Below, piece by piece: positions 11,980 to 63,448 of a stretch of 64,000 nt of DNA. The notes beneath the pieces were generated by a model. It was not told where the DNA came from. It saw nothing but the letters and a program-made list of their open reading frames with translations, and searched no databases. The DNA lies in NCBI RefSeq assembly GCF_000187245.1, contig NC_027866.1, forward strand, positions 426,411 through 490,410. The letters run 5' to 3'. A program made the position numbers and the translations under genes. This DNA is from Ogataea parapolymorpha DL-1. Its lineage: Eukaryota > Ascomycota > Pichiomycetes > Pichiales > Pichiaceae. Within the stretch, counting starts at the first letter, position 1. Each line of letters starts with the position of its first letter.

Positions 11980-13565
11980 ATGTCGAACGAATCGTTTTCC
12001 ATCCACGGATACAATTTAGTGACATTGCTCAAACGGTAAGTGAAAACTTCCATAGAGACTAACTGTGTAGGCTGGAGGCCGCGGCGTCGCGACTTGAAGA
12101 TGTCACCATCTTCCAAGAGAATGCGGTCCACTCGAAAACAAAACAGGCCGGTGGAGCCGTGACAGACGGTACCGACTCGCAGGCCGGAGCTGATGCAAAG
12201 GCAATTGAGGAGCCTGAGAAAGAAGCGCCAGCCATTGAAGCGTTTGATAAATTCTTGGAGGAGTACGTGACTCCATTTGTTGAAATCTCAGATAAAATCG
12301 ACCCCTTGGTTGCTGAGCAGGCCAAATTGTTCGAGAAAGCGCTGCTGGAGGAACGCAAATTCCTCCAGGCCGCCTCCAAGTCTGCGCCCGTCGACGCGTC
12401 GAGCCCAGTGTTCCAGTCGGCGCTCGCTCCGATCAACGAGGTCATTGTCAAGGCGGTGGAGGTCAAGGACGCCAACCGTACCTCCAAGTTTTTCAACAAT
12501 CTCAACGCTGTGGCAGAGGGTATTCCTGCTCTTGGATGGATCTGTGTCACCACACCTGTCTCGTACATTCCAGACTACAAGGACTCTGCCCAGTTCTGGT
12601 CTAATAGAATTTTGAAGGAGTACAAGGAATCCGACCCAAACCAGGTCAAATGGGCCACCACGTTCATCAGAATATTCGACGGCCTCAAAAATTACGTCAA
12701 GGAGTTCCATACCACCGGTCCGTCCTGGAACGCCCAAGGAGGTTCTTTCGAGGAGAATCTGGCCAAGGCCACGTCTTCAGCAACACCTGCTGTTCCGTCG
12801 CCTCCTCCAACACCTGTCTCTGGTGCAGGTGGTCCTCCTCCTCCACCGCCTCCTCCACCGGCCTCCGTGTTTGAAGCAAAGGAGGAGCAGCAGCCAAAGG
12901 GAATGAACGCTGTTTTCTCTGAGCTCAATAAGGGCGAGAACATCACCGCAGGACTCAAGAAGGTCGACAAGAGCCAGATGACTCACAAGAACCCAGAATT
13001 ACGGGCATCATCTGCAGTTCCGGCCAAAAAATCTGTTCCTGTTCCGCCAAAGAAGCCTGCCAGTCTGAGCGAAAAGTCTCCTAAGGAAAAGAAGCCTCCG
13101 AAAAAGGAGCTTGTGGACAACAAGTGGATGGTGGCCAACTTCGAAAACGAGTCCGACATCATCACCATCGACGGAGAGATGCAGCAGAGCATTTTCATCG
13201 CCAACTGTGCCTCCAGCATCATCCAGATCAAGGGCAAGGTGAACGCTATCACGCTGAACGAATGCACCAAGGTTGGACTCGTTGTTGAGAAAGCCATCAG
13301 CGGAATTGACGTGATCAAGTCCAGGAACTTCGAGGTCCAAGTCACCGACTCCGTTCCGATGATCTCGATCGACCAGTCTGAGTCCGGCTCCCTGTATCTG
13401 TCCGCGTCGTCACTGGATACCGAGGTGTTCACCTCGTCTACTACCTCGCTCAACATCAACGTGCCGGAATCGGACGATATGAAGGAGCTTGCTGTTCCGG
13501 AGCAGTTCAAGCACACCGTCAAGAACGGTAAGCTGGTCAGCACGGTTGTTGAACATGCTGGTTGA
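11980..13565 (+). CDS. SRV2: Adenylyl cyclase-associated protein (CAP/Srv2), one 35-nt intron
   Basis: Exons 11980-12035 and 12071-13565 give 516 residues (yeast 526). Exon 1 encodes MSNESFSIHGYNLVTLLKR, matching the Srv2 N-terminus, and splicing restores RLEAAASRLEDVTIFQ, the cyclase-binding coiled coil. The helical CAP domain includes FWSNRILKEYKESDPNQVKW. A proline-rich stretch (nine prolines, about residue 285) and the WH2-like KVDKSQMTHKNPELR follow, then the C-terminal beta-helix (IKGKVNAITLNECTKVGLV) that recharges ADP-actin. It acts on actin turnover and Ras/cAMP signalling. Without the intron the protein would lack a start codon and its conserved N-terminus. Confidence 0.95.
12036..12070 (+). 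other. Spliceosomal intron of SRV2, 35 nt
   Basis: GTAAGT at the 5' end, 23 nt before the branch box CTAAC (GACTAAC at 12057-12063), then TGTGTAG. It interrupts an Arg codon (CG|G). Removing it joins the two halves of the conserved CAP N-terminus in frame. Confidence 0.93.
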
Positions 13566-13600
13566 AAGACTATATACGAAACACAATTACACTAGCGAAC

Positions 13601-14023
13601 TCACTCGGGAACTTCCAATCCGACTCTTCTGGCCGTCTTGCGCACCTTATCCGTCTGCTTCATGCTGATTCCCGGGTTATATCTTTCGAGTAGCTCGACG
13701 TATTCTCTCTGGCTTTTAACGAAGGTGGCCATGTTTTTAAGGTGTTCTAGCTGTTTTGGCGTCAGTTTGTCCGAATCCATCGCTTTCACCATACCGATAT
13801 CGACCTTTGGCATGGTAACTTGTGTACTTTTCTTGACTTCGTCCACGAGTCTAGCATCCTCCTCCGGACTGAGCACCTTGCCAGACCGGACGTACTGCAA
13901 TCTCTTGTATTGTATCAGGGCATCCTGCTTCTTCAGCATGTCCTTCGAGTGTTTTTCGAAAGCTCTCTGGACGGCCGTTTGCAGCTCGTTCACCAAACTC
14001 TGGAAGATCTTGCGGCCAGACAT
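13601..14023 (-). CDS. FMC1: Probable F1-ATPase assembly factor Fmc1 (LYR-like family)
   Basis: A 140-residue protein, mostly helical and basic. The C-terminal pattern LLERYNPGI...VRKTARRVGLEVP resembles what I recall of the fungal FMC1 / Complex1_LYR_2 family, where the protein ends in a VGL-x-(L/V)P motif. FMC1 acts in the mitochondrial matrix with Atp12 to assemble the F1 sector, chiefly at high temperature. The start at 14023 (SGRKIFQSL follows) is chosen because upstream codons overlap the divergent PRP39 gene; an ATG six codons further up (14041) is possible. The family call rests on the C-terminal motif and on size. Confidence 0.6.
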   Translation of the reverse strand: MSGRKIFQSLVNELQTAVQRAFEKHSKDMLKKQDALIQYKRLQYVRSGKVLSPEEDARLVDEVKKSTQVTMPKVDIGMVKAMDSDKLTPKQLEHLKNMATFVKSQREYVELLERYNPGISMKQTDKVRKTARRVGLEVPE

Positions 14024-14051
14024 GAAAATAATATTCATAAAAAAATTATTT
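14024..14051. promoter_or_regulatory. 28-bp divergent gap between FMC1 and PRP39 start codons
   Basis: Only 28 bp, nearly all A/T, separate the two ATGs. Each gene's 5' UTR or promoter elements must therefore lie in the other's coding region. Confidence 0.6.
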
Positions 14052-15557
14052 ATGTCCGACCTCAACGTTGACGACCTGCCCAAAGATTGGCTCGAGCTGT
14101 CGCGGTACTTGCACAAGAACGCTCACGATTTTTCTGCGTGGGAACAGCTTGTCAATGTGGCTCTCAAATTGAAGCAGGACGTGGTGTCCAGCAGACTGGT
14201 GGCCATCTCGTACGAGAACCTACTGGTCAATTTCCCGTACTGCGAGCAGTACTGGTGCAATTATGCCGAGTATTTGTTCCATACAGGTCGCACAGACGAG
14301 GCTCGCGAAATATACGAGCGCGGCGTCGAGGTTGTGCCCAAGTCGATTGTAATATGGACCAAATATTTGGATTTTGTGGTCGAAACTGTGCGCCAGTACG
14401 ACCCGGTCGTTGCTGTGTTTGAGCGTGCGAGAACAGAGGTGGGGACGCATTTCTACGCCCACCTACTGTACGACCGCTATCTACAGTTTCTCAAGGCGCA
14501 TCGCAAAGCCAGAGAGTACCACTATCTTCTGAGACGGGTGATCGAGGTGCCATTGTACCATTATTCCAAATACATCAAACAGTTCTTCAAGCTTATTGAA
14601 AACGCGGATCTCGACACCATCAAGTACCTGGTCACGAAGGAAGATCTGAAGACCGTTTATAAGTTGAGCTGGCCTGATCTTATAGGACGCAAAGACGACA
14701 AGGTTTTCGCCGATCTGAAAAAGGACATGCGCAAACGGTACATGGACCTATATATCACGACACAGTACAACGTGTTTCAGCTCTGGCCGTTTGAGGAAGC
14801 AGTTACACGACCCTATTTTGCTCCCGAGGAGCTGGAACGTCGCGAACTGCATAACTGGAACAGATACCTCGAGTACTGCGAGACGTTGTCGCTCAAGTCG
14901 TCTCACAAGGACTCCGACTCGGCCATCACAAAGAACACGCGCAAGCTCATCGATACCGTTTACGGCCGCTGTCTCATAGCCACTGCATACTATCCGTTTT
15001 TCTGGATCAAATACAGCAACTATTACCTCAATCTCAACCAGCTAGACAGAGCGAAAAAAATATTGATCACTGGGATATATCATTGTGCGACAGAAAACGT
15101 CAAGCTTCGGCTGAGACTGGCGGATCTGGAGGTGCTGACCAGGAATTTGAGTGCTGCCAAGGCCGTGGTGCTCGATCTCTTGCAGTTTTATCCGAACTCG
15201 GTGCAGGCCTGGCTGAAACTGCTCCAACTGGAACATTTGGGGAAAAATAAAGATCTGCTCCAATTGGTGGAAGCCAAGCTCGACGAGGTGGCCGGGACCG
15301 AGCACGAGCTCCATTTCGATTATGTGTTTTTGGAACTGCTGCAATACAATCTCGACTTGGAGCCTTTTCTGCTCAAGTACCAGCACAAGACCAGCTACCT
15401 GTTCTGGAAAGCATGCATAGACTATTACTATCTCTACTCGCCGGACGCCACAAAACTCCAAAACATGTACCGTTCGGCGCTGGAGAAGCTCGGAGACGCC
15501 GATAGGGCCCGACTCGAGGAGTATCTGGATGGCGTGGGCGAGAAGGAATACTTTTAA
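14052..15557 (+). CDS. PRP39: U1 snRNP protein Prp39 (HAT repeats)
   Basis: A 501-residue alpha-helical protein built of HAT/TPR-like repeats, such as WEQLVNVALKL, WCNYAEYLFHTGRTDEAREIYERGVE and WTKYLDFVVE. Conserved Prp39 blocks are present: VFQLWPFEEAVTRPYFAPEELERRELHNWNRYLEYC and YGRCLIATAYYPFFWIKYSNYY. Prp39 is a stable U1 snRNP component that helps commit pre-mRNA to splicing; S. cerevisiae also has the paralog Prp42, which I cannot fully exclude. The open frame extends upstream to 13638, but that part is antisense to FMC1 and carries no similarity. Yeast Prp39 is longer (629 aa), mainly at the ends. Confidence 0.88.
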   Translation: MSDLNVDDLPKDWLELSRYLHKNAHDFSAWEQLVNVALKLKQDVVSSRLVAISYENLLVNFPYCEQYWCNYAEYLFHTGRTDEAREIYERGVEVVPKSIVIWTKYLDFVVETVRQYDPVVAVFERARTEVGTHFYAHLLYDRYLQFLKAHRKAREYHYLLRRVIEVPLYHYSKYIKQFFKLIENADLDTIKYLVTKEDLKTVYKLSWPDLIGRKDDKVFADLKKDMRKRYMDLYITTQYNVFQLWPFEEAVTRPYFAPEELERRELHNWNRYLEYCETLSLKSSHKDSDSAITKNTRKLIDTVYGRCLIATAYYPFFWIKYSNYYLNLNQLDRAKKILITGIYHCATENVKLRLRLADLEVLTRNLSAAKAVVLDLLQFYPNSVQAWLKLLQLEHLGKNKDLLQLVEAKLDEVAGTEHELHFDYVFLELLQYNLDLEPFLLKYQHKTSYLFWKACIDYYYLYSPDATKLQNMYRSALEKLGDADRARLEEYLDGVGEKEYF

Positions 15558-15581
15558 TTTCTGTACATTAATCTATTTACG

Positions 15582-17378
15582 CTATTTTATCACGTAGACG
15601 TTGAACGAGGTGATTGCGATCCAGAAAAAAACGGCAATGTAGCCGACAAATCGGTCGACCCTCCAGTTGCGCAGCGGGACAATGGTGATGTATATGAGCA
15701 GAATGACCACGAGACTGAAACTTGACATTTTCAAATGGTTGTCCACGGTAAATTCCACAGGAGAGCCTGTTTTGATGCAAACCACGAGCGAGCTGAGACC
15801 GACTCCAAATAGAATGTACAGCAGTGGCGAGCCAAAACAGGCGTGCAGGCCCGTGAGCGCGAGTCCCAGGGACGAGAGCGTGCTGTTGGTGATGAGGTCG
15901 CCGATCGAATTACCCATGGAGAGCACCGTAAGCCCCAGCACGGACTCGTCGACGCCGTAGATGGTGCCAGTGTTTTTTAGGATGTTGACGATTTCCGACG
16001 CGGCAGCCGTGATGAGATTGAGCACGTTGACAAAGCCGACAAGCGCAGAAATCGCCGGGAACAGACGACGGTAAAATGTGTGGCCCAGAGCGCTCAAAAC
16101 TATATTGGCAGCGAACAGTACCACCGTCAGTTGCAGTGTCTGGAATGAAAGCTCCTGGAGGACGACAAGCGGCGTTAGCAGCAGCTGGACGTGGAAAAGC
16201 CGCACGTTGAGGTCGAACTCTTTGCGCGAGTTGGCGGGCGTGGGCACGGCGATGTTGATGCAGAAAGCGAGCGGGAGCGTGGCGATGTTGAAGAGCGACT
16301 CGAACGGCTTGTTCCGCAGGGCCAGCCGGCCGTAGTTGGGAACTAGCTTGGTTCTCCACGAGACCTCGACGGGCTCTGTGGACAGGATCGTCGAAATCGA
16401 CGTCGCCGACGCGACGGACGACGTCCGCGAGAGCTGTGTTGGTAGCAGCAGCCGGTCGTCCGTAGAGACTGGCGACTGCGGCGAGTCGTCGTCGGCGGGC
16501 GTGATGACAATGTGCGACGGGACCGGGACGTCATGCTGTCGCGTCTGGACCGCCTCGTCGCCCGACTCGCCACGGTAGTAGTTTGCTATATGTTTGAGGT
16601 CGCAAGTTCTGAAGGCCAGCTTGATGGAGTCGGCCAGCGACAGCCGGAAGCTCTGGCCCGTCTCCAGACTCTCGATGTTCTGCTCAAACGTGTCGACGGC
16701 CGTGGCTTCTGTTTCGGCGCTTGTCTGGTCGTGGACCTTGGGCCGTGTCTCAGCAAGCAGCTTGTCAGGACTGAGGAAGCTGATCAAGATGTAAGTTGCG
16801 TACAGCAGACACATGGCAATGCTCTCAGGCAGCTTGATCTTGCCATCAACTAGGAAAAGCAGCGACAGCACCACCAGCGTGAGGAATAGAGCCACGTCCC
16901 GGACAAACGAGGTATAATCCACGGTGAACGGCCGAACGATGGCCATGGTGCCGACCACGACGGTGAGCGCGAAATTGGCGGATCCGAGCAGCTCGCCGAT
17001 GGCCAGGGCAGTGGAATCGGAGTTCATGGCGATCCAAGTCGACAAAATGTCGGGAGAGCCGTTGGCAAAGGCCAGCAGCGTGAGCCCCGACAGTTTCTCG
17101 CCGAGGTTGAGCAGTCTGGCCAGAAACGTGAGGTTGGGCGTGAGATAGTTGGACGCCAGAAACCCAAGAACAAAAAACAGCGTCGAGATCAGCCCCATGA
17201 ACATGCTCACCACGAGCCACGCAGGCATGTGCGACAAAAACCCTGAACAGTAGTACAGCTCCAGATACTTGAAATTCGAGCGGTCGCAGGTGTCCAAGAT
17301 GAACTGACACACGGTGTACGCGTCGCCCGGCGGCACAGGACACGAGTGCGAGGAGTTGGCAAAGGCGGCAATGGTCAT
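15582..17378 (-). CDS. Sodium/calcium (cation) exchanger, YDL206W/NCLX-like
   Basis: A 598-residue membrane protein with two Na_Ca_ex halves. The first alpha repeat is LSGLTLLAFANGSPDILSTW followed by GELLGSANFALTVVVGTMA. The second is LTVLSMGNSIGDLITNSTLS followed by GLHACFGSPLLYILFGVGLSSL. About 12 hydrophobic segments flank a long hydrophilic, Ser-rich cytosolic loop (residues 215-340). The GNS(I/P)GD signature is typical of the CCX/NCLX branch, as in S. cerevisiae YDL206W. The substrate is probably Ca2+ or another cation exchanged for H+ or Na+; the membrane location cannot be read from sequence. The ATG at 17378 is the first in frame. Confidence 0.85.
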   Translation of the reverse strand: MTIAAFANSSHSCPVPPGDAYTVCQFILDTCDRSNFKYLELYYCSGFLSHMPAWLVVSMFMGLISTLFFVLGFLASNYLTPNLTFLARLLNLGEKLSGLTLLAFANGSPDILSTWIAMNSDSTALAIGELLGSANFALTVVVGTMAIVRPFTVDYTSFVRDVALFLTLVVLSLLFLVDGKIKLPESIAMCLLYATYILISFLSPDKLLAETRPKVHDQTSAETEATAVDTFEQNIESLETGQSFRLSLADSIKLAFRTCDLKHIANYYRGESGDEAVQTRQHDVPVPSHIVITPADDDSPQSPVSTDDRLLLPTQLSRTSSVASATSISTILSTEPVEVSWRTKLVPNYGRLALRNKPFESLFNIATLPLAFCINIAVPTPANSRKEFDLNVRLFHVQLLLTPLVVLQELSFQTLQLTVVLFAANIVLSALGHTFYRRLFPAISALVGFVNVLNLITAAASEIVNILKNTGTIYGVDESVLGLTVLSMGNSIGDLITNSTLSSLGLALTGLHACFGSPLLYILFGVGLSSLVVCIKTGSPVEFTVDNHLKMSSFSLVVILLIYITIVPLRNWRVDRFVGYIAVFFWIAITSFNVYVIK

Positions 17379-17465
17379 TGTCACAATACAGCCATAGGTT
17401 GCGAAAATATGATGTATTTATTTAAATTAATTCTTTTTTTAAATTATGTATTATGCTATGTACAT

Positions 17466-18365: not shown

Positions 18366-18433
18366 GGACAATAATTTAAAAAAAGATCTTGAAAAATTAT
18401 TAAAAAAATCGTTACCCGGTAATCTTTATTGAC

Positions 18434-21566: not shown

Positions 21567-24429
21567 TTACACCTGCGACACCACGGCCTGGCTCGTCTTG
21601 CGCGCAATGGCGGCAACCTTGTCTCCCAGGGACAGAGCCAAACCCTGGCCCTTGGACCGGATCCGCACATGGCCCACGATAGGGCCCTCCGCGGTCTTTT
21701 CAATACACAGGTTGGCCAGAGCATCCTCGCCAAAGGACGATCTCGAGTATAGGTTGGCAGACAAAAACTGGCACTCCTCGCCAATCACTGCGCCCGGAGT
21801 CAGGTTGTTCATGTTGGTGCCCTCCAAGAGCTCGTCCAGGTACTCCTTCAGCGTCGGAAGGTTGGACTTCACGCTGATCTTGTTCTCCCATTCGAACTCG
21901 TTCCACATCTTTCTGAATTGCGCCTCTGTGCACGTAGCAGGCTTGATGTAGTCCATGATGTCCACGTGCAGGTCCGAGAGGATCACAATGGTGTTCTCGT
22001 CGGCGTGCTGGCCGTCGTAAACGATGTTTCCGAAAATGACACCCGTGTCGGCAGAGGTCACCTTGATCGTGGTCTGGACGCGATGGAACGCGTGCGGACC
22101 GATGTTCTGGGTCGTCGGCTTGTCCACCACCTTGAGGTCTCCCAACGTGGCAAACTCGACGCTCAGGTTTCTCAGAGTTTCTGTAGTCTGGTTCACCAAT
22201 AGAACGTCCAACGTCACGTCGAACTGGTGCACCTTGACGTAGGCCTCCGCATACACAGGGTCCGAGAAACCTGTCAGCTGCTTGATCTTCTTCAATCTCG
22301 ACGACAGATCCTCCTTCACGACGGTGGCCCCCGCGGCAAGCGTCAGGTCCTCCTCGTCCAGATCTTCCACCTTGTCCTTGGTGTTTAGCTGTCTGAACAC
22401 AATGGCGTCGTCGACCTGCTCGGCGTTGTTCTGGACGCTAGCCTGCTCCTTGTCCTTGAGCTGTTGCGCCTCAGCAGCCAATTGCTGCTTATATGCCTTT
22501 TTGGTGTCGTCGAGGAACGCCTCGTCGATCAGCGACTCGTCTTTTCCTTCCTCGCTCAAAAACCTCACGCACGATAATATTCTCTCTGCAGAGTCCTCGT
22601 CAATGCGCTTCTTCACCAACGACGACTCGCCCGCTCTCAAAATCGACACCATTATCAACATGGCCTCCGCCTTTAGAGCATTCAGCAGGTCGGTCTTGCT
22701 AGTGATCTTGCTCAGTCTCAACACCATCTTGACCAGAGTGGAGGCCAGAACAGAGCCTAAATAGAAATCACCTTCCAAAAGCAAAGCTCTGAGCGGGTGT
22801 TTGGTAGCCGTAGACACGGCAGTAGTTTTAGAGTCGCCTAGGGCAACCTCGGTGGCATAGGTGCCGTCCGCCAGGATCTTTGGACCGGTGTGGCCATTGG
22901 TCTTGACCTCCTCTTCCTGCTCCTCGTCGTGGCCCTTCTTCTCGGCAGCCAGAATAGGAATGTCGCCGATGCTGGCCCGGATGGCCTTCCAGGCAGTCTG
23001 GATGTCCTTTTCGTCCAGCGAGTACTCTCCGATGATCCACAGACTGCCTCTGAAGATCTTGCCACTCTTGATCGTCTTGAGCGACACAATCAGTCTCTGG
23101 ATAATGTGGCTTCTGAGGTCTGGGAACTTTTCCACCACCTGTTTGACAAAAGTGATGACCTCTGCAGCGGCGGTCGTATTCAGCTCGCTTATGAAGTCCA
23201 GCAGCAGGTCGACAACGCTGGCGGCCACCTCGTGGAATCTGATGGCACAGGAGTGGATGGCAGAAATCAGGAGCTGTCTGTATTCGGAAGATTTCTCTTC
23301 GTTGGACGTGGTGGTTTTCTGGAGCTCTTTCTTCAGCAATTTAACCACATCGTCGACGTTTTTGCTGGTAACCAGCGACAGAGTAATTTCAATGGCTTTT
23401 TGTCTCACATCGAGCGATGGGGCACTCAGAACCCGGAGGATGTCGAGACACATGTCGTCCAGCATGTCTTCGTGCTTGCGGTGCAGCTCGTTGACGATCT
23501 CTAGAGCAATTAGTTTGACGTTGTTGTCGGGCTCCTTGACGGCGAGCTCGATGAATTTCGATGCAGCACTGGTGATAGCTGCTTGTGAGTGAGACAGAAC
23601 GCTCAAAGTAGAGGCAGCCTCGTAAATCACCGCATTGTTGGACGATTCAAGCAGTTCGGAGATGATGTGCAAATACTGTGGTTTGAGCTCCGGGTTGGAC
23701 ACGGCGTCCTTTCTGATGAATTCGATGACGGCCAGCTGAATGATTGGATCGATGGACGTCACCGCCTGCGACTGGATGAACCGCAGAGCAGCTTCTCTGT
23801 CCAGATGTCCGAGACAAACAAAGGCATTGCGTTTGCATGTAGGGTCGTTCTCGACGGCCAAAAAGTCTGCCAATAGCTCTGCCGCGTCTGGGATCAGATG
23901 ATCGGACACCAGATGGACAGAATAGATGGCAAAGACGGCGTTTTTGCGGACGTACGCATGACGGTGTTCCAAACACTGTCTGGCAGAAGGCACCAGTGGT
24001 TCCAATAATTCCGGCTCCTTCAGCTTCGAAAGAAACCTCAGCGTGCTGCCGCGGATGTACTCGTTAGCGTGTTGCAGGTCGTGCTGGATGGCATTGCACA
24101 CAAGGATCATCTCGTGCTTGAGCTTGCCGTCCTGTTCGTATTTCGGACAGATCTCCCAGTAGAAGTAGAGCAGTTTCTTGAGATCCTTGTTTCTCGACGG
24201 CATCACGTACCGGATGATGTGCATCAACAGCCCGGGCATTGGGTCCGAATTGAGCATTGTGATGAGGATCTGTTTCATCACCTCTATCTTGCGCTCGTCG
24301 TCGCCCTTCTCAAGCTGGTTTTTGAACTCATTGACCGAGGTCTTATTCGCGGTGTTGGGCTGACGGTTAGTTTTCGGCAGATCTCGTACTTACTTCGTAA
24401 ACCAACGTATATGCAACGTCTGCAGACAT
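21567..24429 (-). CDS. SEC26: Coatomer beta subunit (beta-COP, Sec26), one 34-nt intron
   Basis: Exons 24394-24429 and 21567-24359 give 942 residues (yeast 973). Exon 1 encodes MSADVAYTLVYE, matching the Sec26 start, and splicing continues with PNTANKTSVNEFKNQLEKGDDERK. The adaptin-like solenoid follows (KIEVMKQILITMLNSDPMPGLLMHIIRYVMPSRNKDLKKLLYFY), with HEAT repeats to about residue 500, an acidic linker, then the beta-COP appendage (LTGFSDPVYAEAYVKVHQFDVTLDVLLVNQT and GTNMNNLTPGAVIGEECQF). It is an essential COPI coat component for Golgi-to-ER traffic. Confidence 0.96.
24360..24393 (-). other. Spliceosomal intron of SEC26, 34 nt
   Basis: Minus-strand GTAAGT, 23 nt before CTAAC (context AACTAAC), then CGTCAG. 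It sits after codon 12, between codons. Without it the conserved beta-COP N-terminus would lack an ATG, because TAA stops occur within the intron frame. Confidence 0.93.
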
Positions 24430-30810: not shown

Positions 30811-31438
30811 ATGACTAGCGAACACCAAGTGTAAGTACTGCCGCAGTCCCTTACTAACATCCAGCAAACCTGTGACGGTTGAGAAACCTATTCCAGTCAA
30901 CTATGATTTGGGCAACCTTGCTGTGTTCGACCCTAATCCTTTGGAAGCCTCGAAAATCACAAATGACAAAACAAAAAACGATTACTTGAGAGACGTGACC
31001 AGAGATAATGTGCAACTGCTAATCAACCAGGTGCTTTCGCTCCCATTGAAAAAGACGAGCGACAACTCCAATGGACAAAACTCGACAATGACGCTGATTC
31101 AGCTGCCTGATCCGACTACACAGCTCCCTCGCGAAAAGAGCATACCTAAGGCCAAAGAACCAACCAAATGGGAATTATTTGCCGCCAAGAAAGGCATCAA
31201 GAAGAAGGGCAAGGACGGAAAGCTTGTGTACGACGAGAGAACCGGCAAATGGGTCAACAAATGGGGCTACAAAGGAAAGAACAAGGAGGTCGAGTCGGAC
31301 TGGCTGGTCGAGCTTGATGACAAGAACGTGGGTACGGAAAATGAGCTCATTGATCCGCGTACGTTGAGCAGAATGGAGCGCAAAAAGCTGGTGAAAAAGA
31401 ACGAGCTGCAGATGAAGCGTAATCGTGAGAAAATTTAG
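30811..31438 (+). CDS. RRS1: Ribosome biogenesis regulator Rrs1, one 34-nt intron
   Basis: Exons 30811-30830 and 30865-31438 give 197 residues (yeast 203). Splicing yields [29 protein letters not shown], where [18 protein letters not shown] is conserved in Rrs1. Further blocks: [54 protein letters not shown] and [14 protein letters not shown] [17 protein letters not shown]. With Rpf2, Rrs1 delivers the 5S RNP to pre-60S particles in the nucleolus. Only 60 bp separates it from the upstream gene and 36 bp from the downstream SWIB gene. Confidence 0.96.
30831..30864 (+). other. Spliceosomal intron of RRS1, 34 nt
   Basis: GTAAGT, 23 nt before CTAAC (context TTACTAAC, a perfect branch box), then ATCCAG. 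It splits a Val codon (GT|C) after 20 coding bases. Splicing gives the conserved Rrs1 N-terminus. Confidence 0.94.
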
Positions 31439-36617: not shown

Positions 36618-36770
36618 TTCCCTCTATTTGAAAGGGGGGATACATTTCTCCCCTTCTATAGGGGGAACGCATTTTATATTTCTCCCTATTTGAAGGGGGG
36701 ATATACTTCTCCCCTTCTATAGAGGGGATGCGCTCTCCCTTTCCATGTAAGGGGAGGTACGTTAAAATTT
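36618..36770. repeat. 62-bp G/C-run tandem repeat with nested inverted repeats
   Basis: TATTTGAA followed by a run of six G occurs at 36625 and 36687 (period 62), with a degenerate third copy near 36749. Each unit carries AAGGGG...CCCCTT and an outer TTCCC(T/C)CTAT...ATAGGGGGAA inverted repeat, so each can fold as a hairpin on either strand. Confidence 0.75.
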
Positions 36771-37288: not shown

Positions 37289-37293
37289 TCAAC

Positions 37294-41144: not shown

Positions 41145-41357
41145 AGCTAGGAATTTAATAGTGCGTGAAATTAAATAATGGAATTAAATTATTGTGGTTT
41201 GAGTATATGAGTGAAGGCTGCTTTTGGAAAAGCTTTTCATCGTGCAGTACCAAAGTGGTTTTATAGCGAGGTCTCTGTCTGATTACCTGCAATTGATCGC
41301 TAGCCATTTTGTTATGTCTCGATCAGATAGTGCAGACCCGCCAAGAACACAACAATT

Positions 41358-41431
41358 GGTTGCGTGGTCTAGTTGGTTATGGCATCTGCTTAACACGCAG
41401 AGGGTCCCCAGTTCGATCCTGGGCGCGATCA
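41358..41431 (+). tRNA. tRNA-Val (anticodon AAC), copy 1
   Basis: 74 nt, intronless. The acceptor stem GGTTGCG pairs with CGCGATC, including wobbles, with discriminator A. The A box is TGGTCTAGTTGG and the B box is GTTCGATCC. The anticodon arm CTGCTTAACACGCAG reads AAC, which decodes GTT/GTC after A34-to-inosine editing. The sequence is very close to yeast tRNA-Val(AAC). It is followed by a TTTTT terminator. Confidence 0.96.
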
Positions 41432-41499
41432 TTTTTAGCTGTTCAGGCGCTTTTTCTGTGAACACATTGGCGGAGACCATCAAAATCTGTCATCCAATC

Positions 41500-41573
41500 G
41501 GTTGCGTGGTCTAGTTGGTTATGGCATCTGCTTAACACGCAGAGGGTCCCCAGTTCGATCCTGGGCGCGATCA
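41500..41573 (+). tRNA. tRNA-Val (anticodon AAC), copy 2
   Basis: Identical in sequence to the copy at 41358-41431, on the same strand and offset by 142 bp. It ends in the same ATC-A and is followed by ATATTTTTAG and a longer T run, a Pol III terminator. The spacer between the copies is unlike either tRNA. Confidence 0.96.
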
Positions 41574-44004: not shown

Positions 44005-45514
44005 CTAAGCATTATAAGTGGAGGCAGAAACGTTACCACCCTTACCGGTCCAGTTGATGTGGATGTAGTCGCCAACCTTTCTGTCCTCGGTGGCGTACTC
44101 CGGCAGGATCTTGAAGGTGTGTGCTCCAAAGTAGTCTCTCTGGGCCTGCAGCAGGTTAGCTGGCAGCTGCTTGGATCTGTAGCCGTCGTAGAAGGACAGG
44201 GCGGTCGAGAAGGCCGGCGTAGGAACACCGGCCTCGATGGCAACGCCAAGCGTCTTTCTCCATCCGGACTGGGCCTTGGCAATGGCCTTGTTGAAGAATG
44301 GGTGGAACAGCAGGTTCTCCAGGTCTGGGTTCTCTCTGTAGGCAGCGGTGATCTCTGCCAGGAAAACCGATCTGATGATGCATCCTCCTCTCCACATCAG
44401 AGCGATGGATGGGAAGTTGAGCTTCCAGTTGTATTCCTTAGCGGCCTCTCTGATCAGCATGAATCCTTGGGCGTACGAGATGATCTTGGAGGCGTACAGG
44501 GCCTGCTCGAGGTCGTCGATAAAGGCCTGCTTGTCAGTGATCTTTGGAGTGCTGGAAGGGCCGGCCAACAGGGTGCTTGCTCTACCTCTTTCCTCCTTCA
44601 AGGCAGACAGACATCTGGCAAACACGGCCTCGCCAATCAGGGTGACTGGCATGCCTAGGTCCAAGGCGTTGATGGCAGTCCACTTTCCGGTACCCTTTTG
44701 GCCGGCAGAGTCCAAGATCTTCTCGACCAATGGGGTGCCGTCGGTGTCGTTGTAGGCAAGAATGTCTCTGGTGATCTCGATCAGGAACGAGTCCAGAACG
44801 CCCTTGTTCCACTTGGCAAACACGTCGGAGATCTCCTTGTCGCTGAATCCGCCGACTCTCTTCATCAGGTCGTAAGCTTCGCAAATCAGCTGCATGTCTC
44901 CGTACTCGATACCGTTGTGGACCATCTTGACGTAATGGCCGGCTCCGGCGTCTCCAACCCAGTCGCAACATGGCTCGCCGTCGCTCTTGGCGGCAATCGA
45001 CTGGAAGATCTCCTTGATGTGTGGCCAAGCCTCTGGGGCTCCTCCCGGCATCAGGGAAGGACCGTAACGAGCGCCTTCCTCTCCTCCGGAGACTCCAGAA
45101 CCAACAAAGTAGATGCCCTTCTCCTTCAGCTCGGCGTATCTTCTGTTGGTGTCTGGGAAGTGCGAGTTACCACCGTCAATGATGATGTCTCCCTTCTCCA
45201 TGTGAGGCAGCAATTGGTTGATGAAATTGTCGACAGCATCGCCGGCCTTCACGAGCAAAATGACTCTTCTAGGTCTCTTGAGCTTGGCACACAGCTCCTC
45301 CACTGAGTGGGCGCCCAGAATTGACTTGCCCTTGGCCTCGTTGGCCAGGAAGTGATCCACCTTCGACACGGTTCTGTTGTAGGCAACAACAGTGAATCCG
45401 TGGTCTGCAGCATTGAGGATCAAGTTTTGGCCCATGACAGCCAGTCCGATCAGTCCGATATCACCTCTGGTGGTTAGAGCCGGGCAGTTTGCGTACTTAC
45501 TGAGCTTCAGTCAT
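44005..45514 (-). CDS. GND1: 6-phosphogluconate dehydrogenase, decarboxylating, one 34-nt intron
   Basis: Exons 45501-45514 and 44005-45466 give 491 residues (yeast Gnd1 is 489). Splicing yields [23 protein letters not shown], the NADP-binding GxAxMGxN start. The enzyme oxidises 6-phosphogluconate to ribulose 5-phosphate and CO2 with NADPH formation in the cytosolic pentose phosphate pathway. Signatures: [33 protein letters not shown], and [20 protein letters not shown] with the catalytic Lys and Glu. The C-terminal helical domain carries [10 protein letters not shown]. Without the intron the frame would begin at an internal Met within the Rossmann motif. Confidence 0.97.
45467..45500 (-). 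other. Spliceosomal intron of GND1, 34 nt
   Basis: Minus-strand GTAAGT, 23 nt before CTAAC (context CTCTAAC), then CACCAG. It interrupts a Gln codon (CA|A) after 14 coding bases. Splicing restores the Rossmann-fold N-terminus. Confidence 0.94.
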
Positions 45515-55684: not shown

Positions 55685-56602
55685 ATGAGCACTGTAAGTA
55701 TGGCCAATGGCCGACGGATGGGCGGTTGAATGTGGGCGCTAACGTTTTAGATTGATAACCCGTACGCTGCAGGCCAAGGGAACCCTTACGCCGAGAACTC
55801 GGCGTACGAGATGACCGGCACGAACCAGTTCTTCACGCTCGTCCAGGACATCAAGGACGACCTTTCAGACTACAATACGTTGATTGACAGACTGGAAAAG
55901 CTGCAACTGGACTCCCTAAACGCGATAGGATCCGAGGAGATGGCCTCTTTCCAGAGACAAATTGACAATAACAATAATACGCTCTCTGACCTCCAGAAAA
56001 ATACAATCAAGCCAAAATTGCAGGCATTGTACAAAGAATGCGGCTCCGACACCGACAAGCAGAAACAGGCCGAGAATTTGACCGCTCAGTTCAGAGCCTC
56101 GATCACCAGGCTGGCCAAAATCGAAGACAGATACAACCAGGCCAACAAGCAGAAAGCCATCAACCAGTACAAGATTGTTAATCCGGATGCTACGTACGAC
56201 GAGGCCGCCGAGTTCGTTTACACGGTTGGCGACCAGCAGGTGTTCGACAACGCCATTCGGATGTCGAACAGGAAAGGCGAGGCGATGACCGTTCTGCAGG
56301 AGGTGCAGGCCAGACACATGGAAGTGGAGAGAACCGAGCGACTTGCTGCCGAGCTGAACCAGCTGTTTGGCGACTTGCAGGAGCTTGTTTTCGAGCAGGA
56401 CGTGATGTTCGACAACGTCAACGAGAATGTGGCTGTGGCCCAGGATCACTTGGAGCGAGGCGACGCCAACGTCATCAAGGCCAGAGACCACGCCCGCAAG
56501 GGCCGGAAACTCAAGTGGATCATCTTCTGGGTCTGTGTGGTGATCATTTGCATCATTGTCGGAGCCGTGGTTGGCGGTGTTGTTGGAGCTGCCAAACACT
56601 AG
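55685..56602 (+). CDS. SSO1: Plasma-membrane t-SNARE Sso1/Sso2 (syntaxin), one 57-nt intron
   Basis: Exons 55685-55693 and 55751-56602 give 286 residues (yeast Sso1 is 290). Exon 1 is only ATG-AGC-ACT; exon 2 continues IDNPYAAGQGNPYAENSAYEM. The Habc region has FFTLVQDIKDDLSDYNTLIDRL, and the Qa-SNARE motif includes AMTVLQEVQARHMEVERTERLAAELNQLFGDLQELVFEQ. The C-terminal anchor is WIIFWVCVVIICIIVGAVVGGVV. It drives fusion of secretory vesicles at the plasma membrane with Sec9 and Snc proteins. One gene probably stands for the SSO1/SSO2 pair. Confidence 0.93.
55694..55750 (+). other. Spliceosomal intron of SSO, 57 nt
   Basis: GTAAGT ... CGCTAAC then GTTTTAG. It follows the third codon. Its length is a multiple of three, but it contains an in-frame TGA, so it must be removed for the ATG to reach the syntaxin frame. 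Confidence 0.88.
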
Positions 56603-58441: not shown

Positions 58442-58469
58442 ATTGTATTAGATGTATCAACACCATAAA

Positions 58470-58727
58470 TCAATGGTTCTTCACTTTTTCCACCACTAGC
58501 TTGTCAAAGTGGTACATTTGCGAGATTGTAGACTGTCTTCTGAGAACTCCGAGCTCCTTTTTCGCCTTTTCTATAATTGCCGAGGTATCGCCATCGAATT
58601 CCTTCAGCTTGCGGAATTCCTCCCTGCTTCTTCTCAAAAAGTACTCCCTGAAATTGTAGTTCTCAAACTTGCGCGAGTATCTCAAAAATTGCCTGTACAA
58701 GGACAGTATCTCCTGTGCTGAAGCCAT
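58470..58727 (-). CDS. ISD11: Iron-sulfur assembly protein Isd11 (LYRM4)
   Basis: An 85-residue mitochondrial LYR-motif protein (yeast 94) that stabilises the cysteine desulfurase Nfs1. The LYR motif is EILSLYRQFLRYSRKF near the N-terminus, followed by FREYFLRRSREEFRKLKEF, the hallmark Phe/Arg helix. ATG 58727 (ASAQEI follows) is chosen; the longer frame upstream to 58775 lies in leader. It ends 28 bp from the convergent ARO8 stop and is divergent from the APQ12-like gene. Confidence 0.93.
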   Translation of the reverse strand: MASAQEILSLYRQFLRYSRKFENYNFREYFLRRSREEFRKLKEFDGDTSAIIEKAKKELGVLRRQSTISQMYHFDKLVVEKVKNH

Positions 58728-58833
58728 GGCGAAGGAAGAAATCAAGTGGAAAATAAAATATTCGCCCCAAATCAATTATTTATCATTAAAACTAACCCTT
58801 ACACCCCCATCTGTATACATTATTGTTTTCATC

Positions 58834-59304
58834 ATGAGCTACGATTACGACTTGACTGTCAGCATGGTTCTGGCCTCTCTCAGAACTGCTATCCTTACGG
58901 CATCAAGATATATTTCCCAGTTCAAACAAGCCTATCCCGAAATCTGGTCGTTATTCATGTACTTTCTTGTGCTCTACGTGAGTGCTAAACTGGTGCTTAG
59001 AATGGCCAGAATGATCTACAGAACGTTTGTCAACACAATAAAGCTGGTGATCTTTCTTGCTGCCGTTGCCGTGGCGATCCAACTGTGGAACAATAAGCCT
59101 GAACTGGCGGAATTAGTGCCTCAAATCCAGTATACTCTGATTCAGCTGTATCGTCTGCTAAAGATGATTGTTACATTTTTGGCAGGAACGCTGACCAGAT
59201 TCGACTGGAGGAATTTTTCAAAGGTGGATCTAGACCGCCTACTGGACTCTCTGAAGGCCACGCGGAGCCAATTCGAGACTCTCTTCCAGCTGAGACTGGA
59301 CTAA
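58834..59304 (+). CDS. Small membrane protein, APQ12-like
   Basis: A 156-residue protein with two strong hydrophobic segments, SLFMYFLVLYVSAKLVL (about residues 40-57) and TIKLVIFLAAVAVAIQLW (about 70-87), and a long amphipathic helix beyond (VPQIQYTLIQLYRLLKMIVTFLAGTL). Size and layout resemble Apq12, a nuclear-envelope/ER protein needed for nuclear pore and lipid homeostasis, but sequence identity is weak by eye. It could also be an unrelated ER membrane protein. A 7-bp hairpin lies directly at and after its stop codon. Confidence 0.5.
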   Translation: MSYDYDLTVSMVLASLRTAILTASRYISQFKQAYPEIWSLFMYFLVLYVSAKLVLRMARMIYRTFVNTIKLVIFLAAVAVAIQLWNNKPELAELVPQIQYTLIQLYRLLKMIVTFLAGTLTRFDWRNFSKVDLDRLLDSLKATRSQFETLFQLRLD

Positions 59305-59327
59305 GCCACACATGCGCCGATGTGGCT
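59304..59327 (+). other. Hairpin at the 3' end of the APQ12-like gene
   Basis: AGCCACA (59304-59310) and TGTGGCT (59321-59327) form a perfect 7-bp stem with a 10-nt loop; the first base is the last base of the stop codon. Possible 3'-UTR element; function unknown. Confidence 0.4.
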
Positions 59328-59595
59328 GGTGTAATCTTAATGTATTTTGTTGCCACCTATGGTCGTGTACAATCGCCAAAGTCCGAGTGGTGATTTTAGC
59401 TAGCATTTCATGAAAAAAAGATGTTTTGTTTTGTTCTCTGCGAATATCTGGAGCGTGTGATATTAAACGAGCTGCAAAAGAACGATCGAACCGGCAGATT
59501 TAAGCTGAAACCAGCGGAATCACCATTTGTACCCGTTTTCAAGACCGAATTGCGCTTTCAAACCATAAAATCATCGCCTTCCAAAACCTTCCACC

Positions 59596-62313
59596 ATGTC
59601 CAACAGAAGAAGAGCATATCCACAGCCAATGTACAAGGCCCCAGACCCGTCGGCTGCATACGGTATACCAGCGCAGCCACAGCAGCCTCAGGCTAACCAG
59701 GGGCTGTACTCTTCTCCACAGGCAGCTGCTCCAGTCAACCAGCTGGCCCAGGGTGTTGCAGGAATCAATCTCGGTGCCCAACAGCCCCAGACTCCAAACG
59801 TGCCTGCGTATCCTCAGGCAGCTCCAGCAGGAATCTACGGCCAGGATGTGGGCGCAGCACCATTGCAAAACCCCGCATATCCGCAGCCTTCGTACCAGGC
59901 ACCGGCTCAGCCAGCGCAAACGGCATTGCCATTGAACCAACTTTACTCCACAGATCTGCTCAAAGAAACTCCTCCACCTATTGCTGACTTGCAGTTCCCG
60001 CCTCCACCGATGATTCTGGCACCAGGCACGTCCGTCAATGGCAACCCAGAGGCAAATTGTTCTCCAGAGTATTTCAGGTCAACTTTGAACGTCGTTCCAA
60101 CGACCAGCTCCTTGTTGAAGAAGTCTAAATTGCCGTTTGCACTGGTGGTGAGACCATACGTCTCGCTCCATGACTCTGAGAGACCTGTTCCTGTCGTCAG
60201 CGACACTATTATCTCGAGATGTCGTAGATGCAGATCGTATATCAATCCGTTCATCCAATTCACGGAACAAGGAAGGAGATGGAGATGTAACTTCTGTTCG
60301 CTCCTAAATGACGTCCCTGGTGGGTTCGACTACGATAGAATGACTTCTACGCCATTGAACAGGTTGGAGAGAAGCGAGCTCAATTACGGAATGGTGGAGT
60401 TCGTGGCTCCTTCCGAGTATATGGTGAGACCACCGCAGCCGTTGGTTTACGTTTTTGTTCTTGACGTTTCCTACGCCTCCATTCAAAATGGTCTGCTGGC
60501 AACTGTCACCAGAACCATTCTAGACACTCTTGATAGAATTCCTAACGAGAACGGAAGAGCCAGAGTTGCGTTCCTGGGTGTTGATTCCAGCATTTCTTTC
60601 TTCACCATCCCAAGTGACGACCAGGAAGATAAAGAAGCCTCGATGATGATTGTTTCCGATCTTGACGACGTGCTGATACCTTCTCCAGATAACTTGCTGG
60701 TGAATTTGAAAGACTGCAGGAAAAACGTTGAGAAACTGCTCAACAACTTTGTTGACTTCTTTGCAAACAACCAAAATACCGGATCGGCATTGGGACCAGC
60801 TCTCAAGTCCGCACACAAGCTGATTTCTCAGATCGGTGGTAAGATTATCACTTTCACATCTGCTCTTCCAAACATGGGTGTTGGAAAACTGGCTATAAGA
60901 GATGAGAACGCTGTCAGTGGTAAACCAAAGGAGGCATCAGCACTTTTGACTTCTAACAACTCATTTTACAAGTCGTTCGCCGTGGAATGTAACAAGTCCC
61001 AGGTGACTGTGGACATGTTTTTGACAGGTTCCAATTATCAAGACGTTGCAACCCTTTCTAACCTTCCAAGGTACACAGCAGGTCAGACTCACTTCTACCC
61101 AGCATGGTCTGCTAGCAGAGTGGAGGATATTACCAAACTCACCAAAGAGGTTTCTAATCATCTCTCCATGGACATTGCTTTGGAGGCTGTGTTGAGAGTG
61201 AGAGGTTCCAGTGGACTGAGAATGAACGCCTTCTTTGGAAACTTCTTCAACAGATCCTCGGACTTGTGCTCGTTCCCAACATTCCCAAGAGACCAATCGT
61301 ATGTCATTGAGGTTGCAATTGACGAGTACATATCCAAACCATACGTTTTCTTCCAATGTGCCGTTTTGCATACGACTTGCTTTGGAGAGAGAAGAATCAG
61401 AGTGCTCACTGTGGGCATTCCAACCTCTAAGGATCTCACAGACGTTTATGCTTCCGCTGACCAATTGGCCATTACGAACTACTTCACGCATAAGGCCATT
61501 GAAAAGACGTTGTCTTCCTCCTTGAACGATGCTAGAGATTACTTAAACAAGGTGTTGGTGGATATTCTCAGTGTCTACAAGAAGGAAATCGTTCCTGGTA
61601 ATCTTGGATCGTCTTCTCCATTGCAGCTCTGCACAAACCTGAGAATGCTGCCATTGTTGTTGCAATCGCTCACCAAGCACATTGCGTTCCGTACGGGCAA
61701 GGTTCCTTCTGACCACCGTTCCTCTGCTCTTAACAGACTGGCCACCTTGCCTCTGCCTAGCCTGATCAACTACATCTACCCTACCGTGTACGCGTTGCAT
61801 TCCATGACAGATGACTGCGGTTTGCCGTATGAGGGTGAGGACGACCCGTACGACATTCCTCCCAAGAAGCACGGCGAAATCGTTCTCCCAGAGGCCATCA
61901 ATGCTACCATTACGAACTTTGAGAAGTACGGCCTGTATCTGATCAACAACACTTCTGAGCTGTTTTTGTACATTGGAGGAGACGCTGTTCCTCAGTTGGT
62001 GAATGACGTCTTTGGCGTGGACTCGATCAATGAGGTGCCAATTGGTAAGGCGGAGCTTCCGGAGCTGGACAACGAGTTCAACGTCCGTGTGAGAAACATC
62101 ATCAACAAGGTTAGAGAAAACGAGGGCTCTATCGAGTACTTGAACCTGTATGTTGTGAGAGGCCCTTCGACTAACGAGAACATGATGAACACCAACAGAG
62201 ACATCATTCCGCTGAGAATGTGGAGCATGTCTGAGCTCGTTGAGGACAGAGTGAGCGCAAACTTGAGTTACAAAGAGTTCTTGACTCAATTGAGAGAGAA
62301 GATCTCGAGCTAG
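59596..62313 (+). CDS. SEC24: COPII cargo adaptor Sec24
   Basis: A 905-residue vesicle-coat protein (yeast 926). The first 130 residues are Pro/Gln/Ala-rich. The zinc finger is SRCRRCRSYINPFIQFTEQGRRWRCNFCSLLNDVP (in part: CRRC...CNFC). The trunk is PPQPLVYVFVLDVSYASIQNGLL and ARVAFLGVDSSISFF. The beta-sandwich, helical and gelsolin regions follow (GKLAIRDE, TGKVPSDHRSSALNRL, YGLYLINNTSELFLYIGGDAVPQLV). With Sec23 it packages cargo into ER-derived vesicles. S. cerevisiae has the paralogs SFB2/SFB3, but Sec24 fits best. Confidence 0.95.
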   Translation: MSNRRRAYPQPMYKAPDPSAAYGIPAQPQQPQANQGLYSSPQAAAPVNQLAQGVAGINLGAQQPQTPNVPAYPQAAPAGIYGQDVGAAPLQNPAYPQPSYQAPAQPAQTALPLNQLYSTDLLKETPPPIADLQFPPPPMILAPGTSVNGNPEANCSPEYFRSTLNVVPTTSSLLKKSKLPFALVVRPYVSLHDSERPVPVVSDTIISRCRRCRSYINPFIQFTEQGRRWRCNFCSLLNDVPGGFDYDRMTSTPLNRLERSELNYGMVEFVAPSEYMVRPPQPLVYVFVLDVSYASIQNGLLATVTRTILDTLDRIPNENGRARVAFLGVDSSISFFTIPSDDQEDKEASMMIVSDLDDVLIPSPDNLLVNLKDCRKNVEKLLNNFVDFFANNQNTGSALGPALKSAHKLISQIGGKIITFTSALPNMGVGKLAIRDENAVSGKPKEASALLTSNNSFYKSFAVECNKSQVTVDMFLTGSNYQDVATLSNLPRYTAGQTHFYPAWSASRVEDITKLTKEVSNHLSMDIALEAVLRVRGSSGLRMNAFFGNFFNRSSDLCSFPTFPRDQSYVIEVAIDEYISKPYVFFQCAVLHTTCFGERRIRVLTVGIPTSKDLTDVYASADQLAITNYFTHKAIEKTLSSSLNDARDYLNKVLVDILSVYKKEIVPGNLGSSSPLQLCTNLRMLPLLLQSLTKHIAFRTGKVPSDHRSSALNRLATLPLPSLINYIYPTVYALHSMTDDCGLPYEGEDDPYDIPPKKHGEIVLPEAINATITNFEKYGLYLINNTSELFLYIGGDAVPQLVNDVFGVDSINEVPIGKAELPELDNEFNVRVRNIINKVRENEGSIEYLNLYVVRGPSTNENMMNTNRDIIPLRMWSMSELVEDRVSANLSYKEFLTQLREKISS

Positions 62314-62931
62314 GCGGTGTACGGGTGTGTAGGCTAAACACGAGAAAATCATCAGCTTATCGTGTTCTCCAATAAAAATCCAATGTTTGGTGAGCGTAAG
62401 GCCGTATTTGAGAGTGGCAGACGGTGAAGGATAATTTTTCCATACTTTGGTGTGCCTAATAAACAAATTCTATAGAAGTTTATTGACGACTGGATTCTTT
62501 GTTGGAATATACCAGAAGTTAGGATACAAAGGGTGAGTAGGAATTGCCATGGGGCCGTTGTCAATGGAATGATCTTACAAGGCTTTTTCAGGAGGATTTT
62601 TATTGCACAGTTAGCGACACAGATGATTGTACACGTCAATGCGGAGAACGACTACACCGTGTAATCAATTGGATGATACAGTGTTCCACAGGGCACTATG
62701 GCTAGCGTATGAATGACGTTATGTTTGTATCAGCTACAGGTCACAATGACGTTTCATTGAAGATTAGCGAACACGAGGCAAGAGCTACAGGGGTATAGCA
62801 GGTGAGCCACGACTAGCCAGACGTGCCTCTGTGCTCGCAAAGAACTCGATCTAAAAGCCGTTTCTTCTCGAAAAGGGTTCCAGCCAATGAGAGCGCAACG
62901 ATTTTGCAATTTTTTATCCTCAGAAAACAGC
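62314..62931. other. 618-bp intergenic region, COX5 promoter
   Basis: No gene, tRNA or repeat is supported here. A CCAAT box (CCAATGA, 62884-62890) lies 48 bp upstream of the proposed COX5 start, fitting HAP-complex control of respiratory genes. Confidence 0.5.
62884..62888 (+). promoter_or_regulatory. CCAAT box, putative HAP2/3/4/5 site for COX5
   Basis: CCAATGA in the promoter of a cytochrome oxidase gene. The HAP complex controls respiratory genes in yeasts. Sequence match only. Confidence 0.4.
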
Positions 62932-63448
62932 ATGTTATGTCAGCAAGCGGTGGTAAGATTTTTCATCTGGTCCCCGATTTTCATATACTAACTCTCAGGT
63001 GTACAACATGTTGAGACAAGCATTGAAGACCGTTCCTAGAGTGCAAGTGAGACACGCCTCTGCACTGTCACAGGCTACCGTGTCGAATATACAACTTAGA
63101 TGGGAGAAACTTCCAGAAGAGGACAGAAAGGAAGTGATCGAGGCTCTTGCTGAGAGACAAAAATTGCCATGGACTCAACTGACTCCGGAGGAGAAGAAGG
63201 CAGCTTTCTACGTTTCGTTCGGCGAGTGGGGACCAAGAAAGCCTATCCACTCCGCTGAAGACATCAGATACATTTTCTGGGGTGTCGTCATTGGTATTTC
63301 TCTCACCGCCACAGGGTTCTTCTACTACAGATCAAAGAGATACATTCCAAAGACCATGAACAGAGAATGGCAAGAGATGTCCGACGAGTACCTGAAATCG
63401 AAGAACGCCAACCCATTCAGTGGATACTCTCAAGTTCAATCCAAATAA
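62932..63448 (+). CDS. COX5: Cytochrome c oxidase subunit 5 (COX IV), one 46-nt intron
   Basis: Exons 62932-62952 and 62999-63448 give 156 residues (yeast Cox5A 153, Cox5B 151). Exon 2 has a presequence (MLRQALKTVPRVQVRHAS) and the subunit IV core: RWEKLPEEDRKEVIEALAERQKLPWTQLTPEEKKAAFYVSFGEWGPRKP, the transmembrane span YIFWGVVIGISLTATGFFYY, and NREWQEMSDEYLKSKNANPFSG. It is a nuclear-encoded subunit of complex IV. S. cerevisiae COX5B also has an intron near its ATG. The alternative model starts at 63008 and places the intron in the 5' UTR. Confidence 0.88.
62953..62998 (+). other. Spliceosomal intron of COX5, 46 nt
   Basis: GTAAGA at the 5' end, a perfect TACTAAC branch box at 62987-62993, then TCTCAG. 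Joining keeps frame with the exon 1 ATG (62932). It may instead lie in the 5' UTR if translation starts at 63008. Confidence 0.8.

What the first reader, a model, noticed from the sequence alone, without database searches (positions are those of the whole stretch)
12036..62998. A class of 34-35 nt introns with a fixed 23-nt spacing from 5' splice site to branch box
Six genes carry a single intron near the ATG. Four of them (SRV2 12036-12070, SEC26 24360-24393, RRS1 30831-30864, GND1 45467-45500) are 35, 34, 34 and 34 nt long. In all four exactly 23 nt lie between the first G of GTAAGT and CTAAC, and 6 or 7 nt follow to the AG. The other two (COX5 46 nt, SSO 57 nt) keep the short 6-7 nt tail but lengthen the first part. 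Each splice restores a conserved N-terminus. These lengths lie below the usual yeast minimum I know of (about 50 nt in S. cerevisiae), and the fixed spacing suggests a lower limit set by U1-U2/BBP contact.
Basis: partly seen in the sequence, partly recalled or inferred. Interest (0 to 1): 0.88.

Follow-up and report, generated by a model that had tools for sequence, protein, structure and literature searches.

The report
Ultra-short introns in a methylotrophic yeast
This yeast's genes carry very short introns, most often about 30-40 letters, and the distance from an intron's start to its branch point seems to stop at a sharp lower limit, which gives a natural ruler for the smallest substrate the splicing machine can handle.

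Summary
The four introns are at the stated coordinates with the stated lengths and spacing; so are the 46- and 57-nt ones. Genome-wide, GTAAGT-N4..34-CTAAC-N0..8-CAG or -TAG occurs 153 and 78 times; reversed-pattern controls give 18 and 26, word frequencies predict about 3 and 1. Twenty-three is not a fixed spacing: in 176 listed hits, spacings 22, 23, 24 are about equally common (27, 26, 22), and length runs 29-53 nt with a mode at 34, plus one 19-nt stray. What stands out is a floor: no hit at spacings 12-19, then 6, 13, 27 at 20, 21, 22. The three hits below 20 that I read were not introns or had a better 5' site. Longer spacings show no clear excess over controls. Best reading: ordinary U2-type introns compacted against a minimum 5' splice site-branch distance of about 23 nt, against about 50 nt reported for human (PMC6692369). 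A 32-bp intron in O. polymorpha MET8 is already in print (PMC8540529). No transcript data could be examined.

The parts
12036..12070 (+). SRV2/CAP intron, 35 nt; CTAAC at 12059-12063; exons 11980-12035 and 12071-13565
   Evidence: Pfam CAP_N-CM runs over the junction (residues 14-53, junction in codon 19). The solved structures align only from residue 69 on.
24360..24393 (-). SEC26 (beta-COP) intron, 34 nt; CTAAC at 24366-24370; exons 24394-24429 and 21567-24359
   Evidence: 2 of 3 solved beta-COP chains align from residue 4, junction after residue 12; the Pfam match starts at 17
30831..30864 (+). RRS1 intron, 34 nt; CTAAC at 30854-30858; exons 30811-30830 and 30865-31438
   Evidence: the three best solved Rrs1 chains align from residue 4, junction in codon 7; the Pfam match starts at 17
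45467..45500 (-). GND1 intron, 34 nt; CTAAC at 45473-45477; exons 45501-45514 and 44005-45466
   Evidence: 16 solved 6PGDH chains align from residue 3-7, junction in codon 5; first downstream Met would remove 15 residues
55694..55750 (+). SSO (syntaxin) intron, 57 nt, spacing 45; CTAAC at 55739-55743; exons 55685-55693 and 55751-56602
   Evidence: stop codon inside the intron; exon 1 codes only three residues, so homology does not test it
62953..62998 (+). COX5 intron, 46 nt, 5' site GTAAGA, spacing 35; CTAAC at 62988-62992; probably in the 5' leader, an in-frame ATG follows at 63008

Best explanation
These are ordinary major-spliceosome (U2-type, GT-AG) introns of Ogataea parapolymorpha DL-1, whose GTAAGT/CTAAC introns have shrunk almost to the smallest size its spliceosome accepts. 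Shown here by sequence: a strong motif set, a population peaking at 34 nt, a sharp floor of 20 nt between the first G and CTAAC (branch A at intron position 24 or beyond, if the second A of CTAAC is the branch, as recalled for other yeasts), a tail of mostly 5-7 nt, and little or no excess of this type at longer spacings. Inferred: deletion trims introns until the 5' splice site partner (U1, later U6) and the branch partner (BBP, later U2) can only just be bound together; shorter introns are not spliced and are lost. A retained U2AF1 fits the short tail. The window's 34-nt introns are typical members, not a special class.
For: Pattern counts 153 (CAG) and 78 (TAG) against 3.2 and 1.2 estimated from word frequencies in 264 kb. 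Spacing in 176 listed hits: 1 at 11, 0 at 12-19, then 6, 13, 27, 26, 22 at 20-24, falling after. Of 20 of the shortest listed hits fetched (all 19 of at most 31 nt, one of 32 nt), 13 join clear coding frames as listed, L032 does so with either of two 3' ends (31 or 34 nt), L039 does so at 34 nt, L036 less surely, L041 and L042 are unresolved, L030 and L044 are not introns. In 20 joined proteins scanned with Pfam, a domain crosses the junction in ten, one of them (SmB-like) only marginally; among them 29-31 nt introns in TCA17-, HIT1-, DAD4-, TFB5-, MDP1- and CDC31-like genes. The GTATGT hit with spacing 18 has a frame-consistent GTAAGT four bases upstream, giving 22. U2 snRNA with GTAGTA, U2AF1 and PRP38 are present. 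A 32-bp intron in O. polymorpha MET8 is reported (PMC8540529, passage).
Against: No RNA evidence could be read. The reversed-pattern controls are 18 and 26 and 142 against 314 for a looser form, well above my word-frequency estimate; I put this down to commoner reversed words (12.4 and 11.5 expected), but the observed controls exceed even that. By those controls the excess is 187 of 231. Ten of the 20 proteins show no Pfam match over the junction, among them SEC26, RRS1 and GND1. Spacing and tail correlate (r = 0.33), so a limit on total length may contribute. The published mean intron length is 65 nt (PMC3866509), so introns longer or of other motif types exist that I did not sample. 53 of 153 CAG hits were not listed and are not in the histogram.
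Confidence: 0.85

Rival explanations
1. A distinct class of 34-35 nt introns with a spacing of 23 nt set by a fixed ruler.
For: Four of six window introns have spacing 23; the exact GTAAGT-N17-CTAAC-N4-AG form occurs 14 times against 1 reversed; length 34 is the single commonest (24 of 176).
Against: Spacings 22 and 24 are about as common (27 and 22 against 26 of 176), the distribution runs on from 20 to above 30, and 34-35 nt make up 40 of 176.
Confidence: 0.04
2. The floor is real (this shares the best explanation's facts) but is set by something other than early splice-site recognition: B-complex geometry, a minimum lariat size, or a limit on total intron length.
For: In human B complexes the gap between the U6/5' site and U2/branch helices is said to imply about 52 nt (PMC6692369, Discussion part 1). 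Spacing and tail correlate.
Against: Total length alone would allow spacing under 20 with a longer tail; none of the 176 listed hits lies at 12-19. The stage cannot be told from sequence.
Confidence: 0.4
3. The matches are chance motifs in coding DNA or unspliced in-frame pieces.
For: Of the hits read, L030, the 20-nt hit of L054 and L056 lie in continuous coding frames, and L044 in no coding frame I could join. Reversed controls are not small: 18 and 26, 17 against 20 for GTATGT.
Against: About 4 expected by word frequency against 231 found; Pfam domains cross the junction in 10 of 20 joined proteins; the spacing has a sharp edge that chance would not give.
Confidence: 0.03

Closest known systems
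32-bp intron of Ogataea polymorpha MET8
   Same: Same genus, same length range, near the start of the ORF (21st codon) (PMC8540529, two passages seen)
   Different: One gene reported in passing; the passages give no motif spacing and no splicing test.
Introns of Encephalitozoon cuniculi (microsporidia)
   Same: Average 35.8 nt with conserved 5' site and branch motif (PMC2483917, passages)
   Different: A parasite listed there as intron-poor. I did not compare spacing floors.
Trichomonas vaginalis type B introns (about 23-26 nt)
   Same: Ultra-short and with a CTAA branch motif close to the 3' end (PMC12316389, passages)
   Different: Shorter than the shortest I support here (29 nt) and of nearly uniform length, so 20 nt cannot be a universal floor.
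Introns of other hemiascomycetes (Debaryomyces hansenii, Yarrowia lipolytica)
   Same: Constrained branch-to-AG distance, for example 6-8 nt in 65% of D. hansenii introns (PMC2483917, passages)
   Different: Y. lipolytica introns are long (median 204 nt, same paper); the short first part is what stands out here.
Human short introns and the Smu1/RED requirement
   Same: The same parameter, 5' splice site-branch distance, limits splicing (PMC6692369; abstract, passages, Discussion part 1)
   Different: Limit near 50 nt in human, about 23 nt here; RED_N and the Smu1 N-terminal part were not detected, but without a positive control.

Membership tests
Major-spliceosome (U2-type) introns | GT-AG ends with strong 5' site and branch consensus matching U1/U6 and U2 | tested here: met
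   GTAAGT, CTAAC and CAG/TAG in counts above chance and above reversed controls; U2 snRNA with GTAGTA found. U1 and U6 were not searched.
Major-spliceosome (U2-type) introns | Removal restores the reading frame of a conserved protein | tested here: met
   Met for SRV2, SEC26, RRS1, GND1 and for most of the 20 short hits fetched; not testable for SSO; not shown for COX5 (probably 5' leader)
Major-spliceosome (U2-type) introns | Spliced in the cell through a lariat | not testable with these tools
Ultra-short introns with conserved branch points (E. cuniculi and T. vaginalis kind) | Most introns at most about 40 nt with a conserved branch motif | tested here: met
   139 of 175 listed hits with spacing 20 or more are at most 40 nt (0.794); this holds for the GTAAGT/CTAAC/YAG type with spacing up to 40, which the search itself bounded; longer spacings gave 14 and 6 hits
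   26 of 176 have spacing 23 and 40 of 176 have length 34-35

The most novel reading that the evidence does not exclude
The Ogataea spliceosome has an altered early or B-complex geometry (shorter U6/5' site and U2/branch helices, or U2 held closer) that lets it bridge only about 23 nt where human complexes are estimated to need about 52, possibly without RED and Smu1; the 20-nt wall in the genome records that geometry with near single-nucleotide sharpness.
Probability: 0.3. Interest if true: 0.8.

Novelty: new member of a known kind. Interest (0 to 1): 0.5.

Why it matters
The minimum 5' splice site-branch distance has been studied on engineered substrates in human extract and explained by B-complex geometry (PMC6692369). 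It also warns that gene models may miss short first exons here: the published average of 65 nt (PMC3866509) is well above the median of 35 in my set, although my set is bounded in spacing. Ultra-short introns with branch motifs are known elsewhere, and one of 32 bp is reported in this genus (PMC8540529), so the kind is not new.

Tried and rejected
Rejected: a fixed 23-nt class. Rejected as introns: L030 (continuous frame), L044 (19 nt, no coding frame), the 20-nt hit in L054 (continuous frame, Tim44-like by recall), L056 (continuous WD40-like frame). Corrected: L053, spacing 18, resolves to 22; L039 joins frame only at the next CAG, 34 nt; L032 joins in frame at 31 or 34 nt. Unresolved: L041 and L042 (30 nt, no stop, in frame). 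No length bias by multiple of three was clear: 46, 62, 52 for remainders 0, 1, 2 among 160. RED_N and Smu1 searches were empty, but nothing rang in any control, so absence is not proved; PRP38 was found by the same method. Rfam gave no hit in the window. Gene names of the extra loci beyond Pfam hits are recalled. That S. cerevisiae needs a minimum distance was seen only as a reference title (Kohrer and Domdey 1988, in PMC6692369).

Literature: ten paper searches ran. In their listings (titles and abstract starts) I saw no report of this floor or of an intron length histogram for this species; passages of PMC3866509 gave only the average of 65. The library holds open-licence papers only, and two older works asked for by id were not held. 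So I cannot say it is unpublished.

Full report
What is there. The four introns lie at the stated coordinates with the stated lengths and spacing. The other two are SSO 55694-55750 and COX5 62953-62998. Read unspliced from the assumed ATG, each frame ends early. For SRV2, SEC26, RRS1 and GND1 the next in-frame Met would cost 296, 39, 81 and 15 residues. Homologues align across or close to the junction: SEC26 from residue 4 in 2 of 3 solved chains, junction after 12; RRS1 from residue 4 in the three best of 9 chains, junction in codon 7; GND1 from residue 3 to 7 in 16 chains, junction in codon 5; SRV2 through a Pfam motif at 14-53, junction in codon 19, though its solved structures align only from residue 69 on. 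For SSO the first exon is three residues and alignments start at 22 or later. For COX5 an in-frame ATG follows the intron and the 7 solved homologues align only from residue 16 or later, junction after 7. So the claim that every splice restores a conserved N-terminus does not hold for COX5 and is untested for SSO.

Organism. Five contig lengths of the genome holding the window (990963, 1273462, 1330267, 1514933, 1515570) equal chromosome lengths in Table 1 of PMC3866509 (passages), the genome of Hansenula polymorpha DL-1, listed in the taxonomy as Ogataea parapolymorpha DL-1 (that the two names are one strain is recalled). The other two chromosomes were assembled there from several contigs, so they are not expected to match exactly. 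That paper gives 457 intron-containing genes and an average intron length of 65; I saw no length histogram in the passages read.

Genome-wide scan. The exact 34-nt form occurs 14 times against 1 for the reversed pattern. A loose form with any AG gives 314 against 142 reversed. The form used here, spacing 10-40 and tail 3-11, occurs 153 times with CAG and 78 with TAG, the reversed controls giving 18 and 26. From word counts in 264 kb the chance expectation is 3.2 and 1.2 forward and 12.4 and 11.5 reversed, so the reversed words are commoner, although the observed controls are higher still. I pooled the listed hits (100 of 153 CAG, 78 of 78 TAG), dropped two nested duplicates by keeping the shorter form, and counted 176. 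Lengths run 29-53 with a mode at 34 (24 hits), plus one hit of 19. Spacings: one at 11, none at 12-19, then 6, 13, 27, 26, 22, 12, 12, 10 at 20-27, falling to 40 with a small rise at 36 (7 hits). Tails: 139 of 176 are 5-7 nt. For the 175 with spacing 20 or more the median length is 35 and the mean 36.9.

Longer introns of this type are rare or absent by this motif: 14 hits with spacing 40-70 against 18 reversed, two of them already, and 6 with 71-101 against 20 reversed, one of which spans two known short introns and another of which overlaps one search hit. My word estimate is about 3 for each range. With GTATGT there are 20 hits against 17 reversed; I read five: two look real, two lie in continuous coding frames, and one is an intron whose better 5' site lies four bases upstream.

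Are the shortest ones real? I fetched about 1.6 kb around all 19 listed GTAAGT hits of at most 31 nt and one of 32 nt. Thirteen join clear coding frames as listed (L029, L031, L033-L035, L037, L038, L040, L043, L045-L048); in L048 only the ATG precedes the intron. L032 joins with a 31- or 34-nt intron, L039 only with 34 nt, L036 less surely. L041 and L042 are unresolved, L030 and L044 are not introns. Twenty joined proteins, four of them from the window, were scanned with Pfam: a domain crosses the junction in six of ten and in four of ten, one marginally; of the window's four only SRV2 does. The shortest supported intron is 29 nt, in a TCA17-like gene (Sedlin_N 8-147, junction after 12). Five of the six hits with spacing 20 were fetched; four join clear frames (HIT1-, RCF1-, NDUFA2-like and a homeodomain gene; names partly recalled), one is in frame without a stop. 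All six hits that fall in the 200 kb of C3 I hold join coding frames, four by script and two by eye. Three apparent spacings below 20 did not survive: the 18 becomes 22, the 12 lies in a continuous frame, the 11 has no coding frame.

How it works. The parts are those of normal splicing: GTAAGT, CTAAC, CAG/TAG, a U2 snRNA with GTAGTA (its role in branch pairing is recalled), U2AF1 at C3:596805 with E 2e-48 and PRP38. Retained U2AF1 fits the view that it keeps the branch-to-AG distance short in yeasts (PMC5499181, passages). The floor puts the branch A at intron position 24 or later. In human, about 50 nt between 5' site and branch are reported as needed, and B-complex helices 15 nm apart are said to imply about 52 nt (PMC6692369). 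By my own rough estimate a spacing of 20 leaves perhaps a dozen free nucleotides, under 9 nm, so either the pairings are shorter or the complex is arranged differently. RED_N and the Smu1 N-terminal part, whose proteins help human spliceosomes on short introns, were not detected, without a positive control. Which step sets the limit is inference.

Known and new. A 32-bp intron in O. polymorpha MET8 is in print (PMC8540529, passage). Ultra-short introns with branch motifs are known in E. cuniculi (average 35.8) and T. vaginalis (about 23-26 nt) (PMC2483917, PMC12316389, passages). So this is a new member of a known kind, and 20 nt is not a universal floor. What I did not see in the listings of ten searches is the genome-wide distribution with its sharp lower edge in this yeast; the library lacks many subscription papers, so this is not proof that it is unpublished.

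Noticed in passing
L006, genome C3:706648-706754, minus strand: A ubiquitin-conjugating-enzyme-like gene (UBC8-like by recall) carries two 34-nt introns, both with spacing 23, separated by a 39-nt exon; joining both gives one continuous protein.
   Followed up: partly
L039, genome C5:149972 onward: An ERG25-like gene (name recalled) joins frame only if a CAG three bases after CTAAC is skipped for the next one (34 nt, tail 7), although the TCA17-like gene in L035 seems to use a tail of three; what decides this is unknown.
   Followed up: partly
L041, genome C2:667667-667698, minus strand: Splicing this 32-nt candidate would create an ATG across the junction in front of a MADS-box-like frame (MCM1-like by recall), with a further in-frame ATG three codons on.
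   Followed up: no
L045, genome C5:426936-426965: A homeodomain gene, perhaps a mating-type gene, carries a 30-nt intron with spacing 20 inside the homeodomain.
   Followed up: no
genome-wide pattern hits: Spacing and tail length correlate (r = 0.33; 1 of 5000 permutations reached it): introns with a short first part tend to have a short tail too. I have no explanation beyond general compaction.
   Followed up: partly
window 36618-36731: A small cluster of diverged direct repeats (21-39 nt units rich in CCCC/GGGG) in a stretch without large ORFs.
   Followed up: no
window 41357-41573: Two tRNA-Val (AAC) genes in tandem.
   Followed up: no
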